A DNA stretch of 64,000 nucleotides, taken from contig PYJA01000044.1 of the NCBI GenBank assembly GCA_003635185.1, forward strand, positions 24,680-88,679, in the 5' to 3' direction. Every line of letters begins with the position of its first letter. The first letter of the stretch is position 1. The translations under genes were made by a program, and so were the position numbers. Source of the DNA: Candidatus Poribacteria bacterium. Lineage in GTDB: Bacteria > Poribacteria > WGA-4E > WGA-3G. Below, piece by piece: positions 49,497 through 62,964 of the stretch. Below the pieces are notes generated by a model, which worked only from the letters and a program-made list of their open reading frames with translations, ran no database searches and was not told where the DNA came from.

Positions 49497-49623
49497 ATGT
49501 CAATTGAGTGCCTGATTTTCTTGTTGGAGGGCTTTGGAAGCCCGATTTTTTGAAACCTAATCCGTTAAATCGGGGTTAGAAACCCCTCCAACAATAGGAT
49601 ATATCCTTAAATTGACACCTATG
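49497..49623. repeat. MITE-like element, family B
   Basis: ATGTCAATTGAGTGCCTGATTTTCTTGTTGGAGGGCTTTGGAAGCCCGATTTT...CCTCCAACAATAGGAT...TTAAATTGACACCTAT; near-identical to 57683-57813. Confidence 0.8.
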
Positions 49624-51508: not shown

Positions 51509-53107
51509 ATGGCAAGAGAAGTCCGACCGGACGAAATATCTAATATACTAAAACAGCAGCTGCAACAGTTTGAACAGGACGTAGATGTCTACGACTCTGG
51601 CACTGTGCTGGAGGTAGGCGACGGTATCGCACGGGTGCATGGGCTTGCCAACGCAATGGCGAGCGAAATGATTGAATTCCCGAACGATATTTACGGCATC
51701 GCTTTTAACCTTGAAGAAGACAACGTCGGTTGTGTGCTGTTCGGTGAAGACCAACTTATACATGAAGGCGATACCGTAAAACGCACAAATAGGCTGCCTG
51801 AAGTGCCTGTCGGTGAGGCACTCCTCGGACGGATCGTTGATGCACTCGGACAACCCATTGATGGCTTGGGAGATATTCACACAGAACATAGACTCCCTGT
51901 GGAACAGAAAGGGTTAGGTATCGTTCAACGGCAACCTGTCAGTGAACCACTTTACACAGGCTTAAAAGCTATTGATAGTTTAACACCAATCGGTAGAGGA
52001 CAGCGGGAACTCATTATCGGTGACCGCAGAACTGGTAAAACTGCAATCGCAATAGATGCAATCCTCAGCCAGAAGAACACAGATGTTTATTGCTTTTATG
52101 TTGCTATCGGTCAAAAGGGTTCTACGCTGGCGCAAGTTGCGAATACCCTTCGTGAACATAATGCGATGGAATATACCACCATCGTCTCAGCACCTGCAAG
52201 TGCGCCGTCACCGCTGCAATATCTTGCTCCCTACTCTGGCACTTCAATGGCGGAATACTTCTGCCATAACGGCAAACACGCGCTTATCATCTACGATGAT
52301 CTGACAAAACATGCGTGGGCATACCGCCAAATGTCACTGCTTTCACGCAGACCGCCGGGGCGTGAAGCATATCCTGGTGATGTGTTCTATCTACATTCAC
52401 GCCTATTAGAACGGGCTGCGAAACTTAGCGACGAGTTGGGAGGCGGTTCACTCACCGCGCTACCGATTATTGAAATCTTTGAAGGTGATTTGACGACCTA
52501 TATTCCGACAAACGTTATCTCAATCACTGATGGGCAGATATACTTAACAACGGATCTATTCAATCAAGGTGTGAGACCCGCTATTGATGTTGGTACGTCT
52601 GTTTCGCGTGTTGGAGGTGATGCGCAGGTCAAAGCAATGAAATCGGACGAAGTTGCAGGCACACTAAAACTTGATCTTGCAAGTTTCCGAGAAGTTGCTG
52701 CCTTTGCACAATTCGGATCGGATCTGGATGCATTAACACAATCTCTGCTCTTACGCGGCACGAGGCTTGTAGAATTGCTGAAACAACCGCAATATCAACC
52801 GATGCCTGTTGAAAGAGAAGTTGCCTCTATCTTCTGCGGTACAAACGGCTATTTAGATGATGTTCCTGAATCAGAAGTTGCACGGTTTGAATCTGAATTC
52901 CTGCAGTCCCTTGACAGGAATCATGCAGAACTCCTTTCAGAAATCGCAGAAACCGGTCTGTTGAGTGATGAATTGCTTGAAACCTTGCACGCCGCAGCAA
53001 AGGCATTCAAGGAAAATTGGAGTGATACACCGCCAGCGCATCCGCAAATTGAGGAAGTGCCAGCAGCAGAGGACACAGGCACAGAAACACCGACAGAAGG
53101 TGAATAA
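51509..53107 (+). CDS. atpA: F1Fo ATP synthase subunit alpha
   Basis: [44 protein letters not shown]. Confidence 0.97.
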
Positions 53108-53163
53108 CCATGGCAACGTTACGAGAAATTCGGTGCCGTATCGCCAGCATTAAAAACATTGAG
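53009..53163 (+). repeat. Left copy of atpA 3' / atpG 5' direct duplication flanking the R-M pair
   Basis: AAGGAAAATTGGAG...GAAGGTGAATAACCATGGCAACGTTACGAGAAATTCGG(T)GCCGTATCGCCAG(C)ATTAAAAACATTGAG. Confidence 0.95.
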
Positions 53164-53232
53164 TTTTCAGGAAGTTTTAAAAATGTGAGTTTAGTTCGCT
53201 TCCGATCTGAAATAAGGACAATAAAATGGTAA
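53110..53232 (+). pseudogene. Truncated atpG 5' fragment (18 native codons then unrelated tail)
   Basis: MATLREIRCRIASIKNIE identical to AtpG start except one residue, then FSGSFKNVSLVRFRSEIRTIKW*; stop overlaps the ATG at 53226. Confidence 0.9.
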
Positions 53233-54206
53233 AGACCATTGATGAGAAAGTCAATACCGTTTTAACGCAAAATACTTTCTGGTTTCAGGATAGAGAGTTT
53301 GAGGAAAAGTACGAAGCGAATATTACTGTTCTGAAAGAAACCTTACTTGTGTTGAGAAATGAGATTCAAAATCAAGGTCTGACCAAGAAATTACTTGAAG
53401 ACTTACTTTTGAAAAAAGCAAACGGGTTAAAGGTTTTGCTGACACTCACAGGATTATCCAACGAATCCTTTAAGCGGTTAGTTAGTTTTATTAGGGTCGT
53501 TGATGATGCGGAACTTTCAAAATTCTCTTTTAGAGATCAATGGATAGAAGAATCAGAATTAGAAAGCCTTGATATAAGAGAGTGGTCTGATTCAAAAATC
53601 GAAAGTAAAATTCGGGAGAATGTATATTTTAGAAAAGGTATTGTCAACCTTTTTTATGAAGGTTCAACTATTCCTTTGCTATCTAAAACTCTCCCACTGT
53701 TTGAGTTAAAAAAGTTAAGCTGTTCTAAACTGAAATTTGACATTGAAGCAATGATTGATACTTTGATCCGCTATAAAGAAAAAGGCTCTTATTCGGGCAA
53801 AATGAAAAATAATCCAGAAGTCACTATCGGTAAACTCTTAGACGACATAGAAATTAGTTTTGAGAGCGGCGACCTAAATAAACTGAAAGAACACGCTCCA
53901 ACCGAGAAACGTACAATGGATTTTATCATTCCCAATCAAGAAAATCCCCAAATTATTATTGAGTCATCATATTTGACAACGACTTCTTCAGGCCAAGGCG
54001 ACAAAGCGAAAACTGAGAATCACATTAGACACTTACTTAAAGAACATTACCCTAACGCGCGCTTTTGGGGATTTGTTGACGGTATCGGGTGGTATGTTCG
54101 GAAAAACGATTTGCGAAGAATGGTTGAAGCGTTTGAAGATGTTTTCACTTTGGAAGAATCGGAACTTAAACGTTTCCAACAATCGTTAATTGCCGTTTTA
54201 AAATAA
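53226..54206 (+). CDS. Putative type II restriction endonuclease (PD-(D/E)xK-like, partner of adjacent methyltransferase)
   Basis: Adjacent to DNA methyltransferase; EKRTMDFIIPNQENPQIIIESSYLTTTSSGQGDKAKTENHIRHLL resembles an endonuclease core. Confidence 0.65.
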   Translation: MVKTIDEKVNTVLTQNTFWFQDREFEEKYEANITVLKETLLVLRNEIQNQGLTKKLLEDLLLKKANGLKVLLTLTGLSNESFKRLVSFIRVVDDAELSKFSFRDQWIEESELESLDIREWSDSKIESKIRENVYFRKGIVNLFYEGSTIPLLSKTLPLFELKKLSCSKLKFDIEAMIDTLIRYKEKGSYSGKMKNNPEVTIGKLLDDIEISFESGDLNKLKEHAPTEKRTMDFIIPNQENPQIIIESSYLTTTSSGQGDKAKTENHIRHLLKEHYPNARFWGFVDGIGWYVRKNDLRRMVEAFEDVFTLEESELKRFQQSLIAVLK

Positions 54207-54247
54207 CAGAACGTTAATAATCCCTCATGATTTATTTAAGGTGTACT

Positions 54248-55219
54248 ATGGACAAATTTATCAACAAAATCATTCACGGCGATTGTATAGAGGTTATGCA
54301 GCAAATTCCTTCAGATAGCATTGATGTTACATTTGCTGATCCGCCTTTTAATCTGAAAAAAAATTACGGGAATTACAAGGACGAAAAGAATACAGACGAT
54401 TATCTCAGTTGGTGTAAACAGTGGATCCTTGAAATGATAAGAATAACAAAACCGAGTGGATCCATTTTTCTTCACAATATCCCTAAATGGCTTACCTATT
54501 ATGCTGAGTTTCTAAACGAAGTTGCAGATTTTCGCCATTGGATCGCATGGGACGCGCCAACTGCACCTATGGGCAAAACTTTGCAACCCTCGCACTATGG
54601 CATTTTGTTTTATGCAAAGAATCAACAGGAAAACAAATTTTATGAAATTCGGTATCCACATAAGCGATGTCGCAAATGTGGATACTTGTTAAAAGACTAC
54701 GGTGGAAAAAAGAAAATTCTACACCCTTTTGGACCGCTTGTTTCTGATATATGGTCGGATATTCACCGCATTCGTCATAATAAACATAGAGACCCACATC
54801 CATGCCAACTTCCAGTACATCTTTTAGAACGTATTCTTTTAATGAGCACAGACGAAGGGGATGTCGTTTTAGATCCATTTATGGGGACAGGCACAACCGC
54901 CGTTGCTGCCGCAAGATTGGGAAGGAACGTTATCGGCATAGATATCGATCCTCAATATGTCCAAATTACTAAAAAGAAATTAGCACAGGAATCCCCAAAC
55001 TCTAAAATTGAGGATATTTGGGTAAGTTTTTATCTCGGTGAAATTGTTACAATTGTTGATAAAGATTGGGAACTGTTGAAGTCGTCCTTTGTGATACCAG
55101 AAGATATGAAGTGTATTGACTTCAAAAAAATCAAAACTAATGGCGGAGTCATTACCACGGCACCGCAGACCCGTCAACTTTCTTTAGATCTTAAAGAGGA
55201 AAAATGTGACTGTTATTAA
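54248..55219 (+). CDS. Type II DNA methyltransferase (beta-type motif order, DPPF)
   Basis: VTFADPPFNLKKNYGNYKD; VLDPFMGTGTTAVAAARLGRNVIGIDID; start set at MDKFINKIIHGDCIEVMQ. Confidence 0.92.
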   Translation: MDKFINKIIHGDCIEVMQQIPSDSIDVTFADPPFNLKKNYGNYKDEKNTDDYLSWCKQWILEMIRITKPSGSIFLHNIPKWLTYYAEFLNEVADFRHWIAWDAPTAPMGKTLQPSHYGILFYAKNQQENKFYEIRYPHKRCRKCGYLLKDYGGKKKILHPFGPLVSDIWSDIHRIRHNKHRDPHPCQLPVHLLERILLMSTDEGDVVLDPFMGTGTTAVAAARLGRNVIGIDIDPQYVQITKKKLAQESPNSKIEDIWVSFYLGEIVTIVDKDWELLKSSFVIPEDMKCIDFKKIKTNGGVITTAPQTRQLSLDLKEEKCDCY

Positions 55220-55313
55220 AGGAAAATTGGAGGGACACACCACCATACCAACCACAAACCGAGGAAGTGCAAACTGAAGAAACAGAAGAAGCACCCACAG
55301 AAGGTGAATAACC

Positions 55314-57651
<2,338 letters not shown>

Positions 57652-57682: not shown

Positions 57683-57813
57683 TATAGGTATCAATTTAGT
57701 GCCTGATTTTCTTGTTGGAGGGCTTTGGAAGCCCGATTTTGTGAAACCTAATCTGTTAAATCGGGGTTGAAAACCCCTCCAACAATAGGATATTTTCTTA
57801 AATTGACACCTAT
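57683..57813. repeat. MITE-like element, family B, in the atpD-atpC gap
   Basis: TATAGGTATCAATTTAGTGCCTG...TTAAATTGACACCTAT; flanked by GGGTAGAGCGCCAGCGAAACC at 57662 and 57814. Confidence 0.85.
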
Positions 57814-57941
57814 GGGTAGAGCGCCAGCGAAACCCAACTTATAGACTGCATGTAGTTTTGCCAAACTGGCAAAACGGATTACGTGAATAATTATTATTTG
57901 CCAAGAGAAACCTAACCGAACGCTTGGCGCAAGGTTAAAAA

Positions 57942-58349
57942 ATGTTAAACAGAAGTTTTCACCTTGAAATACGCACACCAGAAAAACTGATTTACGAAGG
58001 CGATGTGACCAGCGTTAACGCGCCGGGAATTGAAGGCAACTTCCAAATTCTATACGGACACATCCCTTTCCTTACAGCCTTAGATGTCGGTGAAATCCGT
58101 GTCAATGAATCGGAAACGCCGCGGTCAATGGCGACAAGTGGCGGCGTTTTTGAAGTGCTACGCACGGGTGTCACCGCATTGGTTGAAACAGCAGAATGGG
58201 CATCGGATATTGACGTGACACGTGCTGAAAATGCACTTGAACGGGCCCAAGAGCAACTTGCTGCAGATACACCGGATTTAAATCGCCCACGTGCTGAAGC
58301 GGCCCTTGCGCGTGCGCAAAATCGGATTAAGGTTGCAAGCGATTTGTAA
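57942..58349 (+). CDS. atpC: F1Fo ATP synthase subunit epsilon
   Basis: FHLEIRTPEKLIYEGDVTSVNAPGIEGNFQILYGHIPFLTALDVGEIRV. Confidence 0.95.
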   Translation: MLNRSFHLEIRTPEKLIYEGDVTSVNAPGIEGNFQILYGHIPFLTALDVGEIRVNESETPRSMATSGGVFEVLRTGVTALVETAEWASDIDVTRAENALERAQEQLAADTPDLNRPRAEAALARAQNRIKVASDL

Positions 58350-58436
58350 GTATCACTCCGATGCGTCCATTTTTACACAAAAAACTTGAGACAGATCAGA
58401 ATTGTCAGTATAATTAACCATAAGAAGACTTAATTG

Positions 58437-58877
58437 ATGCCGCTTCCTAATTTGAACGATGCAGGTGAATTGCCTATAGGAATACATCAAGCTACAATTG
58501 ATGAGGTGATTGCTCAATTTGGCAGCGGAACCTTACAGCGAAAAATTGTGACTACACGTTTGCAAAGAATCTATCAAATCGTTAAAGGGACGGGAAACCT
58601 TCAGCAATTGATTATTTTTGGAAGCTATATTACGGCGAAGCCCGAACCTAACGATGTGGATGTTGTGGTTATCTTTAGTGACGATTTTGACCTAACGGTT
58701 TGCAACGAGGAAGTAAAAAGACTTTTGGACCATCAACAAGCAGAAAACGAATTCGGAGCCAGTATATTTTGGATACGTCCATCGTTACTGTTGTTTCAGA
58801 CACTTGAGGAGTTTATTGAAAGTTGGCAAGTTAAACGTGACGGGACGCGGCGCGGTATCGTAGAGGTGAGAAAATGA
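58437..58877 (+). CDS. Nucleotidyltransferase-like protein
   Basis: LQQLIIFGSYITAKPEPNDVDVVVIF (GS...DxD). Confidence 0.7.
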   Translation: MPLPNLNDAGELPIGIHQATIDEVIAQFGSGTLQRKIVTTRLQRIYQIVKGTGNLQQLIIFGSYITAKPEPNDVDVVVIFSDDFDLTVCNEEVKRLLDHQQAENEFGASIFWIRPSLLLFQTLEEFIESWQVKRDGTRRGIVEVRK

Positions 58878-59119
58878 TTCAGAATGACAAAGAGCTCAAA
58901 GTAAGTCAAGAACGCATAGCGTATTTTCAAGACTTGCTCTTACAACTGCGGGTTAAGGCAACACCTGAAGAATTTGCGCTCATCTCAACTGGATATCGGA
59001 CTGAAATTCTGAAAATGCAAGATGAAGTGCTCGAATACTTGACTCGCCATTCATGTGAACCGATACCTACGAATACGACTGCTGCAGAGATATCAGGTGC
59101 TTCAACTAATGGGAACTGA
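58874..59119 (+). CDS. Small partner protein of the nucleotidyltransferase (putative TA pair)
   Basis: 81 aa; 4 nt overlap with upstream gene; VSQERIAYFQDLLLQLRVKATPEEFALISTGYRTEILKMQDEVLEYLTRH. Confidence 0.65.
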   Translation: MIQNDKELKVSQERIAYFQDLLLQLRVKATPEEFALISTGYRTEILKMQDEVLEYLTRHSCEPIPTNTTAAEISGASTNGN

Positions 59120-59142: not shown

Positions 59143-59335
59143 GGTTGAAACAGTAGGGTGGGCATCGGATATTGACGTAGCACGTGCTGAAAGTGCGCTT
59201 GAACGTGCCAAAGAACAACTTGCGACAGATGCGCCCGATTTGAATCGTCCACGTGCAGAAGCGGCACTTGCCCGCGCACAAAATCGGATTAAGGTTGCAA
59301 GCGATTTGTAAGCATCGCTCCGATGCGTCGATTTT
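59143..59335 (+). repeat. atpC 3'-end copy C1 (incl. stop codon)
   Basis: Encodes VETVGWASDIDVARAESALERAKEQLATDAPDLNRPRAEAALARAQNRIKVASDL* versus native VETAEWASDIDVTRAENALERAQEQLAADTPDLNRPRAEAALARAQNRIKVASDL*. Confidence 0.97.
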
Positions 59336-59433: not shown

Positions 59434-59856
59434 ATGCGCCTTGAGAATTATGAACCTGCCGAATATAAACTCAGCAAGTCCCAAGTCGAAAAGCAAAAGC
59501 GTGAAATATCAGCGCAATTTGATATCCTATCACAACGGGAAGATAATTGGGATGGACGCGGTTCACAAAAACCAACCGAATTAACATTAGTGCACGCGAA
59601 AGTGATTATGAACGCATTGTTAGATTCTGTCACTTCCGTCGGATATCAGTGCGATATGCCATCTATCTCCAGCGATGGAGACGGCTATGTAACCGCAGTA
59701 TGGTACAAAAACGAACGGCAATTACACCTTCAAATTGGAGAACATGAGGCTGAATACTTCAAAGTTTGGGGCACGAATATTGATACAGAGATGGACGCAG
59801 ACTTTCTAAAACCTGAAAATTACCTACCGCTTTGGAAATGGTTAATTGATGAATAG
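59434..59856 (+). CDS. Uncharacterised protein with NWDGRGS motif (first gene of a pair)
   Basis: ILSQREDNWDGRGSQKPTELTLVHAKVIMNALLDSV; overlaps next gene by 11 nt. Confidence 0.7.
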   Translation: MRLENYEPAEYKLSKSQVEKQKREISAQFDILSQREDNWDGRGSQKPTELTLVHAKVIMNALLDSVTSVGYQCDMPSISSDGDGYVTAVWYKNERQLHLQIGEHEAEYFKVWGTNIDTEMDADFLKPENYLPLWKWLIDE

Positions 59857-60316
59857 CAGAAAGCCCGTGCAAGATAATGAGGAACTTTATCGAAACGTAC
59901 GAGGCAAATTGGAAGATAAGGAATATACAATTCAAGATGGAAAACTCATAATTGAGTATCACGCCTTTTGGGATTCATCTTTGAAACCGTCTGTAGATAG
60001 AGCGAAGTTAAAAGATTTCGAGCCTACTTCGGCTCTATTATGTGAAACGAATGGTATTGTTAGCATTCAAGCGGGTGATGTCCGCGCAATAGGAACTGTA
60101 AAAACGAAACATAAGAATGAAGTGATAGCTGTTCATGCCGTAGATGTTATCCCTGATCCAACACCTGAAAATCCAGCACATGCCATAATTATTGTAAAAC
60201 CTGAATTTTTTGATTCTAAAAGCAAGCAGAAAAATGCATTCAAGTTACTACAAATCGCACTTGCTCAGCTTGCTACTAAAAGCGGATGGACTTTAGAACC
60301 AAACCCGCAGGAATAA
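59846..60316 (+). CDS. Uncharacterised protein (second gene of a pair)
   Basis: NEELYRNVRGKLEDKEYTIQDGKLIIEYHAFWDSSLKPSVDRAKLKDFEPT. Confidence 0.7.
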   Translation: MMNSRKPVQDNEELYRNVRGKLEDKEYTIQDGKLIIEYHAFWDSSLKPSVDRAKLKDFEPTSALLCETNGIVSIQAGDVRAIGTVKTKHKNEVIAVHAVDVIPDPTPENPAHAIIIVKPEFFDSKSKQKNAFKLLQIALAQLATKSGWTLEPNPQE

Positions 60317-60331
60317 CCAAAAGCGTTTTTC

Positions 60332-60490
60332 GGATATTGACGTAGCGCGTGCTGAAAATGCACTTGAACGTGCCAAAGAACAACTTGCGGCAGATGCGCC
60401 CGATTTGAATCGTCCACGTGCTGAAGCGGCACTTGCCCGCGCACAAAATCGGATTAAGGTTGCCAGTAATTCGTAAGCATCACTTTGCAG
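60332..60490 (+). repeat. atpC 3'-end copy C2 (incl. stop codon)
   Basis: Encodes SDIDVARAENALERAKEQLAADAPDLNRPRAEAALARAQNRIKVASNS*. Confidence 0.97.
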
Positions 60491-60545: not shown

Positions 60546-60782
60546 CTAAGCAGACCTTAACAATTTTTCGACATTCCATTTAATAGTTGGTGGTGGAAGT
60601 GTTTCATTTTCTTGGCGTGCAACTTCTATCCATTCATCAACAATCTCACACAACTCGCGATACACCTCAACTTCATCATCACCATGACAACACGTGCCGA
60701 TAATTCCTGGGCAAAACCCAATAAAACATTGGTCCTCGTCTGACCATTTCACAATTTTAATATACTTTGCGCTATCTGTCAT
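60546..60782 (-). CDS. HicB-like antitoxin (orphan)
   Basis: IKIVKWSDEDQCFIGFCPGIIGTCCHGDDEVEVYRELCEIVDEWIEVARQENETLPPP. Confidence 0.65.
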   Translation of the reverse strand: MTDSAKYIKIVKWSDEDQCFIGFCPGIIGTCCHGDDEVEVYRELCEIVDEWIEVARQENETLPPPTIKWNVEKLLRSA

Positions 60783-60850
60783 TATTGAGACTCCTCAATT
60801 TTTCTTTTAACTTCCTTTAATAGTAACACACATGCCTTGTTGAATTGAGA

Positions 60851-61357
60851 TTAGAGATAACCTGCCTCGGAGAGTAAGTTCGCGAGGTTATTTTTTCTGC
60901 CACAACGTCCTGTCAGGACCGTCAAAGTTTTACCTTTGAATTTCATCTTAAGTTCTCGTTTTTGATGTTTTGGATTAGCCTCTCTAATACCCCTCTTGGT
61001 AAACACAATTGGAACGTAGACAGGCTCTTTTAAATCCTGCACGAGTGTAGCGGCAAATTCTAAACCGCTTTTCAACTGATCAAGCACTTGTGATTCGTCG
61101 CCTTTACCACGACCTTTGAGTTCAATTGGAACAGCAAAGAGGATATTTCTATTCCTGTAAAACAGCAGCCGGTCACACCGTTTTCTGCTATCTCCGCGTA
61201 AATCAAACTCTTTCTCTACATTTATCACGATCTTCTGTCTGGGTATGTCGGTCCGGTATACCTTACACCCTTCTCCGCCGCAGTCATTAGTGAGGCTGTC
61301 TGGAGACACCTGCTCTTGAACGTGCGTAAGTCCTTTACTCAGATTCAACCGCATCAC
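60851..61357 (-). CDS. PD-(D/E)xK-like nuclease candidate, second gene of ATPase pair
   Basis: FDLRGDSRKRCDRLLFYRNRNILFAVPIELKGRG (D...ExK-type core). Confidence 0.55.
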   Translation of the reverse strand: MMRLNLSKGLTHVQEQVSPDSLTNDCGGEGCKVYRTDIPRQKIVINVEKEFDLRGDSRKRCDRLLFYRNRNILFAVPIELKGRGKGDESQVLDQLKSGLEFAATLVQDLKEPVYVPIVFTKRGIREANPKHQKRELKMKFKGKTLTVLTGRCGRKNNLANLLSEAGYL

Positions 61358-62777
61358 TCCCTTTCATTTGCTCAATTCTATTTTGTAATCCTGCCGAACG
61401 GTTATAGAGATCCTCCGCTATATCCAAATGATCCTCCGGTTCTATACCTTCAACAAGGTCAAATGGGAGTTCTGTGACCGGCTCGTTCTTATGGAACTGC
61501 CACGCGCCTACCTCTTCCGCTTTCAGCCAGTCTGCTGATTCACTTGTGGGTTTTCCGTGTTTTTGCAATTCACCTTCGCGAATTAGGTTGCTGATTTGTT
61601 GGAGGAGATAGTTGCTATGGGTTGTAATCACGACGCGAACACCGGCTCGGATCAAACGAGCAAGGGTTTGGGCGATCTTAGTTTGCGCACCTGGGTGCAG
61701 GTGAGATTCAGGTTCTTCAATAATGAGCAAGTCACCCTGTTTAACAATACTTCGCAGAAAGAGGACTAAAGGCGCAAGCTCAGACACCATTGCAGAGGAG
61801 TGACTCATCCGCAGTGCCTCTTCTGCCTGATCTGGACGGTACAGAAATTCCGGAGACGCTTCTGGTGTGGGGCGTTCAACCTCTATTTTCCCCTCCAGCA
61901 GCTCTGCTTCCAGTTGTTCAGCAACGCGACGTATATTACTTGACGATCCCTTGTGTTCCTTGTAGTTAACGATCTGCTGCAGAAAATCTGCTACCATTCC
62001 CGAAAACATAGATAATTCAAAGCGATCTAAACCGAGACGCGTCGACCACTTGATAAGGGCAGTCGCAAGCACATCGCGGCTTTGCATGATCCCGCTGCGG
62101 ACAGCAGGCAAGTAATATGAATACCCTTCCTGCCACTGATCAGTACGTAAAGTCTGCAATAGGTGTTCAACATCAGGCACCGGACAGAATTCTGTCTTAC
62201 GTTTTGCGTCAAGAAGAACCATGTCTGGATTGATACGACCTATTATCGTAGGATCAGCGGATCCAGAGGCACGTACCTCAAAATCCCAAAACTTATGTTC
62301 TTTATCCCGAACCGTCAGTGAAACTTTCATTTCTTTGTCTTGACTCTCAGTGAATCGAATTAACTTGGAAACATCCTCAAGATTGAAACACCGTTTCAGC
62401 TCATTTGGGAAGTCTTCCTGATGTGTAAGTCCATACGCCAACGTGACTTGTATCCGTTGCGGTAAGTCGGAAAATTTGAACGGACGCTCAGGCGTGTTTA
62501 ACTTGTCGAGTGCCGCTAACATCTCTTGTTCTAACGCCTCCCATTGATCTTGTGGATAATGGTCAGGTGAACGGAGAACAAAATCGAAATAAGAAGCAGT
62601 AGAGTCTGCCCAAGGAAATTGTGAGATGCCCCCAAAATTCTCGTATAATGCGTAAATGAGAGCGGCGAGATATGTCTTACCAGTGTTACTCTCACCGACA
62701 AATACAGTCAGCGGGCGCAGGTCTATCTCTGCCTTTTCTATGGGACCGAAGTTTTTTACGTTAATATAGGCGTTCAC
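61335..62777 (-). CDS. AAA (ABC/OLD-like) ATPase
   Basis: LTVFVGESNTGKTYLAALIYALYE; GDLLIIEEPESHLHPGAQ; RVVITTHSNYLL; GTG start at 62777 preceded by GGAGAAG. Confidence 0.85.
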   Translation of the reverse strand: MNAYINVKNFGPIEKAEIDLRPLTVFVGESNTGKTYLAALIYALYENFGGISQFPWADSTASYFDFVLRSPDHYPQDQWEALEQEMLAALDKLNTPERPFKFSDLPQRIQVTLAYGLTHQEDFPNELKRCFNLEDVSKLIRFTESQDKEMKVSLTVRDKEHKFWDFEVRASGSADPTIIGRINPDMVLLDAKRKTEFCPVPDVEHLLQTLRTDQWQEGYSYYLPAVRSGIMQSRDVLATALIKWSTRLGLDRFELSMFSGMVADFLQQIVNYKEHKGSSSNIRRVAEQLEAELLEGKIEVERPTPEASPEFLYRPDQAEEALRMSHSSAMVSELAPLVLFLRSIVKQGDLLIIEEPESHLHPGAQTKIAQTLARLIRAGVRVVITTHSNYLLQQISNLIREGELQKHGKPTSESADWLKAEEVGAWQFHKNEPVTELPFDLVEGIEPEDHLDIAEDLYNRSAGLQNRIEQMKGSDAVESE

Positions 62778-62859
62778 TGCTTCTTCTCCTATTGGTGATG
62801 ACTTTGAATTAATTATATATTCATCAGTGATCAATAGCAAGGAAATGAATCGATAAATC

Positions 62860-62907
62860 GCACTTGCGCGTGCGCAAAATCGTATTAAGGTTATGAACAA
62901 TTCGTAA
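62860..62907 (+). repeat. atpC 3'-end copy C3 (short, incl. stop codon)
   Basis: GCACTTGCGCGTGCGCAAAATCGTATTAAGGTTATGAACAATTCGTAA = ALARAQNRIKVMNNS*. Confidence 0.88.
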
Positions 62908-62964
62908 TTACTTCTTCCAGTTTTCCGGTAAGCGCGCTTTGTAAGCGTGCTTTACCTTCCCGCC

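What the first reader, a model, noticed from the sequence alone, without database searches (positions are those of the whole stretch)
59434..60316. Uncharacterised two-gene mobile module (NWDG protein + LKPSVDRA protein)
Seen: two overlapping genes (11 nt) of 140 and ~155 aa, delimited on both sides by atpC-end copies, i.e. a complete transferable unit. Protein 1 carries DNWDGRGSQKP; protein 2 carries LYRNVRG...FWDSSLKPSVDRAKL. I recognise no characterised toxin, nuclease or transferase motif. Inference from position (siblings are R-M, TA-like and ATPase/nuclease modules): a defence or toxin-antitoxin-like pair.
Basis: partly seen in the sequence, partly recalled or inferred. Interest (0 to 1): 0.72.

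Follow-up and report, generated by a model that had tools for sequence, protein, structure and literature searches.

The report
Short PDC-M32-like toxin–antidote gene pair
A sponge-symbiont-type bacterium carries a small mobile two-gene unit that is a stripped-down distant relative of a candidate anti-phage system, and the way its genes are lost across relatives suggests the second gene is a toxin kept in check by the first; no experiment has tested this yet.

Summary
The two genes are real: A 59434-59856 (140 aa) and B 59849-60316 (155 aa, from the conserved ATG). Both are under purifying selection and found as a pair in many genomes of the phylum. Copies of the atpC 3' end (86-87% to atpC, 94% to each other) flank them, and the same site in relatives holds other modules. 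Neither protein matches Pfam, NCBIfam or PDB. Both are distant, colinear relatives of the two subunits of PADLOC's untested 'phage defence candidate' PDC-M32. A matches only its C-terminal ~100 residues; the ~250-residue N-terminal domain is absent.

Across 85 genomes, intact B is almost never found without A (1 of 35 assessable), whereas intact A often lacks B (17 of 49). A second, divergent pair type repeats this (1 of 37 against 44 of 81). A is acidic and upstream. B's predicted fold (pLDDT 88) has no significant PDB or viral match and keeps Ser49 and His112 in 58/58 sequences and Arg16 in 53/58.

Best reading: a minimal toxin/antidote-type defence module of the PDC-M32 superfamily that travels attached to an atpC 3' end. 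Homology and mobility are well supported, the toxin/antidote polarity is inferred, and the biochemistry is unknown.

The parts
59434..59856 (+). Gene A (P1), 140 aa, acidic (pI 4.7), 'NWDG' domain; proposed antidote
   Evidence: ORF; family alignment; PDC-M32A C-terminal match; pI and dN/dS
59849..60316 (+). Gene B (P2), 155 aa from ATG 59849 (156 from TTG 59846); proposed toxin/effector
   Evidence: ORF; start and overlap; family; PDC-M32B relation; model pLDDT 88.2
59849..59856 (+). 8-nt overlap ATGAATAG (B start inside A stop), translational coupling inferred
   Evidence: comparable overlap in the other type-1 pairs
59891..59893 (+). Codon of B Arg16 (numbered from TTG 59846), Arg in 53/58 family members
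59990..59992 (+). Codon of B Ser49, invariant 58/58; a Ser is at the matching 'LS' position in the plasmid PDC-M32B proteins
60179..60181 (+). Codon of B His112, invariant 58/58; a His is also invariant in the plasmid PDC-M32B proteins
57942..58349 (+). Intact atpC; its own 3' end appears to have been replaced by an incoming one
   Evidence: 5' part 92% but 3' end 81-82% identical to the nearest relatives, against 88-90% for the downstream copies
59143..59335 (+). atpC 3'-end copy 2 (upstream edge of the A-B unit)
60330..60484 (+). atpC 3'-end copy 3 (downstream edge of the A-B unit); left breakpoint at atpC nt ~262
62860..62910 (+). Fragment of a further atpC 3' end (82%) at the far end of the module array

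Best explanation
A-B is a minimal toxin/antidote-type module of the PDC-M32 superfamily of candidate anti-phage systems. A is made first and B is translated from an overlapping start. A, an acidic protein made only of the 'NWDG' domain that forms the C-terminus of PDC-M32A, binds and restrains B. B is an effector of undescribed fold whose conserved Arg16/Ser49/His112 are the best candidates for its active or ligand-binding site. If A is lost or disturbed (phage attack, or loss of the DNA), B is freed and harms the cell or the infection. The unit carries no recombinase and travels attached to an atpC 3' end: it recombines into atpC near nt 260-275, gives atpC a new 3' end and displaces the old end downstream. 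Shown: the genes, their pairing, homology of both to PDC-M32A/B, one-way dependence of B on A, purifying selection, replacement of the atpC 3' end. Inferred: A-B binding, toxicity of B, defence role, trigger.
For: Homology. A matches PADLOC PDC-M32A in 27/29 family members (best 9e-9), only in profile region ~255-345 of 375. hhalign of A family against three real PDC-M32A: E 8e-5, C-terminal region. B family against real PDC-M32B: E 1.4e-4, colinear; one family member hits PDC-M32B at 0.0017. The real PDC-M32 pairs on Rhizobium, Rhodococcus and Limnohabitans plasmids have the same order and overlapping genes. Polarity. Type 1: intact A 49 (32 with intact B, 7 with broken B, 10 with none); intact B 36 (32 with full A, 2 with an N-terminally divergent A, 1 with a frameshifted A, 1 at a contig end); Fisher p 3e-4 to 1.4e-3. 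Type 2: intact A 81 (37 with B), intact B 37 (36 with full A); p 8e-9. A of the orphan or broken-B loci stays under purifying selection (dN/dS 0.05-0.16). A is acidic in all pairs tested. Abundant orphan antitoxins are reported for known TA systems (PMC7192599). A and B distances correlate, r 0.90. B model pLDDT 88.2, pTM 0.83. Mobility.
Against: No toxicity or phage data exist. PDC-M32 is itself untested as far as the held library shows. A has no recognised DNA-binding domain. One-way dependence also fits 'A does the work, B is an optional accessory'. The window's B does not itself reach any PADLOC model. Mirror-tree correlation is expected from simple co-inheritance. MAG frameshifts may inflate the count of broken B, and genomes are related, so the Fisher counts are not fully independent.
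Confidence: 0.55

Rival explanations
1. A is the primary functional protein (sensor or effector) and B an optional accessory; together they act as a defence complex without toxin/antidote logic.
For: A occurs without B in 17/49 (type 1) and 44/81 (type 2) loci and stays under purifying selection there. In several relatives A carries a conserved N-terminal tag plus variable linker, and PDC-M32A carries a 250-aa extra domain, so A is the more elaborated partner.
Against: B pseudogenes beside intact A are common (7 and 8 cases), while broken A beside intact B is nearly absent, which is the pattern of selection against free B. B is as strongly constrained as A and holds the invariant polar residues.
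Confidence: 0.25
2. The pair is a selfish addiction module that only stabilises the atpC-linked segment, with no antiviral role.
For: It sits in an array of small exchangeable modules with atpC-end copies. The toxin/antidote asymmetry fits addiction as well as defence.
Against: The homologous family was listed by PADLOC as a phage defence candidate. Neighbouring modules include an ATPase resembling PD-T4-4/PDC-M47/AriA and, further upstream, a restriction-modification module. Unit-level loss is frequent among relatives.
Confidence: 0.15
3. An ordinary housekeeping or metabolic gene pair that happens to lie beside atpC.
For: The genes are conserved and under purifying selection.
Against: Patchy presence (30/85 genomes), several unrelated sites, multiple decayed copies, no Pfam or NCBIfam family.
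Confidence: 0.05

Closest known systems
PDC-M32 (PADLOC phage defence candidate, PDC-M32A + PDC-M32B)
   Same: Two adjacent overlapping genes in the same order. A's whole domain aligns with the C-terminus of PDC-M32A. B aligns colinearly with PDC-M32B and shares its Arg, Phe, Ser and His positions.
   Different: The ~250-residue N-terminal domain of PDC-M32A is absent; some relatives instead carry an unrelated N-terminal tag and linker. B is too divergent to reach the PADLOC models directly.
Type-2 A/B pairs of the same phylum (alignments A8/A7, loci L043-L046 and others)
   Same: Same order and overlap. Both members hit PDC-M32A/B weakly. The joint alignment raised the B model from pLDDT 55.6 to 88.2. 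Same A-without-B asymmetry.
   Different: Only ~20-25% identical in B; A lacks the NWDG motif itself.
Type II toxin-antitoxin modules
   Same: Small overlapping operon, acidic upstream protein, frequent orphan upstream gene, downstream gene almost never alone.
   Different: No homology of either protein to a known toxin or antitoxin family, no recognised DNA-binding domain in A, toxicity untested.

Membership tests
PDC-M32 | First gene matches the PDC-M32A profile | tested here: met
   27/29 family members, best 9e-9; window A itself 0.0012, C-terminal region only
PDC-M32 | First gene has the N-terminal ~250-residue domain of PDC-M32A | tested here: not met
   Window A is 140 aa and aligns only to residues ~259-351; the longer relatives' N-termini do not align either
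PDC-M32 | Second gene reaches the PDC-M32B profile | tested here: not met
   Window B: no PADLOC hit up to E 1; a single family member at 0.0017
PDC-M32 | Second gene homologous to PDC-M32B by profile-profile comparison | tested here: met
   hhalign E 1.4e-4, colinear over ~100 columns; shared Arg/Phe/Ser/His
PDC-M32 | Two adjacent co-directional overlapping genes | tested here: met
   8-nt overlap in the window; overlapping genes in the Rhizobium, Rhodococcus and Limnohabitans pairs
PDC-M32 | Protection against phage | not testable with these tools
   No experimental report found in the held library; the single paper found lists PDC-M32 only as a PADLOC prediction
Type II toxin-antitoxin | Downstream gene toxic alone, neutralised by the upstream protein | not testable with these tools
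   Needs expression assay
Type II toxin-antitoxin | Toxin rarely found without its antitoxin, antitoxin often found alone | tested here: met
   Type 1 p about 3e-4 to 1e-3; type 2 p 8e-9
Type II toxin-antitoxin | Belongs to a known toxin or antitoxin family | tested here: not met
   No Pfam/NCBIfam family for either; PHROGs only one weak partial match to a family of unknown function; no PDB sequence match for either family profile; no PDB/BFVD fold match for B

The most novel reading that the evidence does not exclude
The NWDG-domain protein and the SVDRA-family protein are the core of a so far undescribed toxin-antidote superfamily, spread over several phyla, whose toxin has a new fold with a Ser/His/Arg site; PDC-M32 is its elaborated defence form, with a sensor domain added to the antidote. 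The short form travels between bacteria by swapping gene 3' ends at atpC without a dedicated recombinase of its own.
Probability: 0.35. Interest if true: 0.78.

Novelty: new variant of a known kind. Interest (0 to 1): 0.52.

Why it matters
It reduces an uncharacterised candidate defence system (PDC-M32) to a two-protein core of about 300 residues, predicts which protein is the toxic one, names three residues to mutate and gives a confident model with no solved relative. That makes the mechanism directly testable in E. coli. The exchangeable modules behind atpC also show a simple route by which small defence-type genes change places.

Tried and rejected
Pfam, NCBIfam and PHROGs scans of the window proteins and PDB sequence searches gave nothing useful. 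The WRAP-T hits of A are designed or repeat proteins with zero significant stretches, and the family profile does not repeat them. A first B model from type-1 sequences only was poor (pLDDT 55.6) and its PAS/LOV fold hits were discarded; the good model gives no significant match. The Acetobacter plasmid pair (tandem NWDG protein + 'SspB') was considered as an intermediate, but its second protein is not B-like. A shared N-terminal tag on other proteins was sought and found only on A of this family. Searches of genome contigs and viral contigs failed because that machine did not answer, so the distribution outside the phylum rests on plasmid records only. Flanking direct repeats as a general rule for the pairs: only 9 of 62 loci within the available flanks, against 1 inverted control, so repeat bracketing is not claimed for every copy.

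Full report
Observation. The window is part of a 4.57-Mb draft genome in 141 contigs. Gene A runs 59434-59856. Gene B is open from a TTG at 59846, but the family's conserved start is the ATG at 59849, giving an 8-nt overlap. The intact atpC (57942-58349) is followed by a nucleotidyltransferase-type module (DUF6932, 58434-59119), an atpC 3'-end copy (59143-59335), A-B, a second copy (60330-60484), a HicB-like gene, a nuclease/ATPase module and a short third fragment (62860-62910).

Reality of the genes. The genome holds two more pairs (C140, 55-56% identical; C78, 29-35%) and a lone A (C28). In 85 genomes of the phylum the B profile finds 30 positive genomes and the A profile 31. In intact pairs the genes are adjacent, same strand and A first, nearly always overlapping. 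Synonymous changes outweigh nonsynonymous ones in both (dN/dS 0.07-0.45).

What they are. No Pfam or NCBIfam family fits. PADLOC gives a weak hit of A to the C-terminus of PDC-M32A, and this becomes consistent across the family: 27 of 29 members, best 9e-9, always in positions about 250-345 of 375. One B relative hits PDC-M32B. Genuine PDC-M32 pairs on Rhizobium leguminosarum, Rhodococcus qingshengii and Limnohabitans plasmids (A full-length 5e-86 to 2e-168, B 1e-49 to 4e-35) let both families be compared profile to profile. A aligns with the C-terminal ~100 residues of PDC-M32A (E 8e-5) and B with PDC-M32B (E 1.4e-4). Two independent matches to the two subunits of one two-gene system, in the same gene order, are strong evidence of common origin. 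The ~250-residue N-terminal domain of PDC-M32A is missing. Several relatives have instead a conserved ~57-residue N-terminal tag and a linker of variable length, found on no other protein in the family's genomes.

A second pair type, found through the PDC-M32B profile, occurs in 39 (B) to 51 (A) of the 85 genomes and hits PDC-M32A/B weakly on both members. Aligning its B with the window's B (20-25% identity) raised the predicted model from pLDDT 55.6 to 88.2 with pTM 0.83. This is indirect support that the two types share one fold. That model has no significant match in the PDB (best E 0.49) or among viral proteins (best E 0.08). Ser49, His112, Ile115 and Pro119 are invariant in 58 sequences, Phe41 in 57 and Arg16 in 53. 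Arg, Phe, Ser and His positions are also invariant in the three plasmid PDC-M32B proteins.

How it works. The best clue is loss. Of 49 intact type-1 A genes, 17 lack an intact B: 7 have a decayed B beside them and 10 have none. Of 36 intact B genes, 32 have a full A, two have a full-length but N-terminally divergent A, one has a frameshifted A and one lies at a contig end. Fisher p is 3e-4, or 1.4e-3 counted harshly. Type 2 repeats this: 44 of 81 intact A lack intact B, against 1 of 37 intact B lacking a full A, p 8e-9. Orphan or broken-B copies of A stay under purifying selection (dN/dS 0.05-0.16, although part of that divergence may predate the loss of B). This one-way dependence, an acidic upstream protein (pI 4.2-4.9) and the overlap are the usual marks of an antidote followed by a toxin; orphan antitoxins are abundant in Klebsiella (PMC7192599). 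The counts come from related draft genomes and are not fully independent. The alternative that A is the working part and B an accessory is not excluded.

How it moves. In 13 of the 20 other genomes examined at atpC, one or more substantial extra copies of the atpC 3' end (100 nt or more) occur downstream, most starting between atpC nt 240 and 274 and ending near the stop codon. The modules between them are reshuffled: DUF6932 modules in G035, G075, G081 and G083; A with broken B in G042; a complete pair in G038; A without B in G037 and G041. In G044 the intact atpC runs directly into the gene that follows copy 3 in the window (92.7%), which is the site without this unit. The 5' part of the window's atpC is 92% identical to its nearest relatives but its own 3' end only 81-82%, while the displaced copies are 88-90%. 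So newcomers bring their own atpC end and push the older ends downstream. None of the genes seen in the array is a recombinase. Homologous recombination through the shared atpC ends is the simplest mechanism, but the recurrent left breakpoint could also reflect a recombinase acting in trans; this was not resolved.

Verdict. The finding is real and its interpretation was on the right track. It is a short variant of an uncharacterised candidate defence family, with a supported prediction of which partner is the toxin. It is not filed as PDC-M32 itself, because the N-terminal domain of A is absent and B does not reach the PADLOC model.

Noticed in passing
window 53005-53163 and 55215-55367: A restriction-modification module (DpnII-like endonuclease 53226-54206 and N4/N6 methylase 54227-55219) sits between two 83%-identical copies of the atpA-end/atpG-start junction, the same bracketing principle as at atpC.
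   Followed up: partly
window 58434-59119: DUF6932/nucleotidyltransferase gene plus 81-aa gene, a module directly behind atpC, also found behind atpC with atpC-end copies in other genomes (L126, L128, L129, L130).
   Followed up: partly
window 60546-62900 (- strand): HicB-like protein, a nuclease-like protein (weak PDC-M47B / PD-T4-4_B matches) and an AAA ATPase close to PD-T4-4_A, PDC-M47A and AriA: probably a defence module of its own.
   Followed up: partly
L114 1451-2056 and 4670-5083; L115 1429-1938 (reverse-complemented coordinates): A's C-terminal segment is fused in frame to an atpC-end copy at ATTG(A)CGT, with B lost; chimaeric A-AtpC reading frames in two genomes (G041, G037).
   Followed up: partly
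L016, L018, L020, L023, L024, L031, L032, L036: A proteins with a conserved N-terminal tag (M..LQ.ATYSS.L.GT.SSGASP..Y...W) and variable, partly repeated linker before the NWDG domain; absent in the window copy; meaning unknown.
   Followed up: partly
L044 22-993 and 2204-3176: A type-2 pair lies between two 973-bp copies (91.5%) of a Phd-like antitoxin + PIN-domain (VapBC-like) cassette.
   Followed up: no
L067 4935-6240 (Acetobacter persici plasmid): A protein with two NWDG domains (PDC-M32A 1.7e-7) overlaps by 11 nt a 140-aa gene annotated as SspB that is not B-like: the NWDG domain may have exchangeable partners.
   Followed up: partly
L011 4947-6814: A lone NWDG-domain A gene directly follows a DNA methylase with an HNH domain in the same genome.
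   Followed up: no
window 49510-49623 and 57701-57814: A ~114-bp, partly palindromic repeat (95% identical) in two intergenic spaces of the atp cluster, possibly a small non-autonomous mobile repeat.
   Followed up: no
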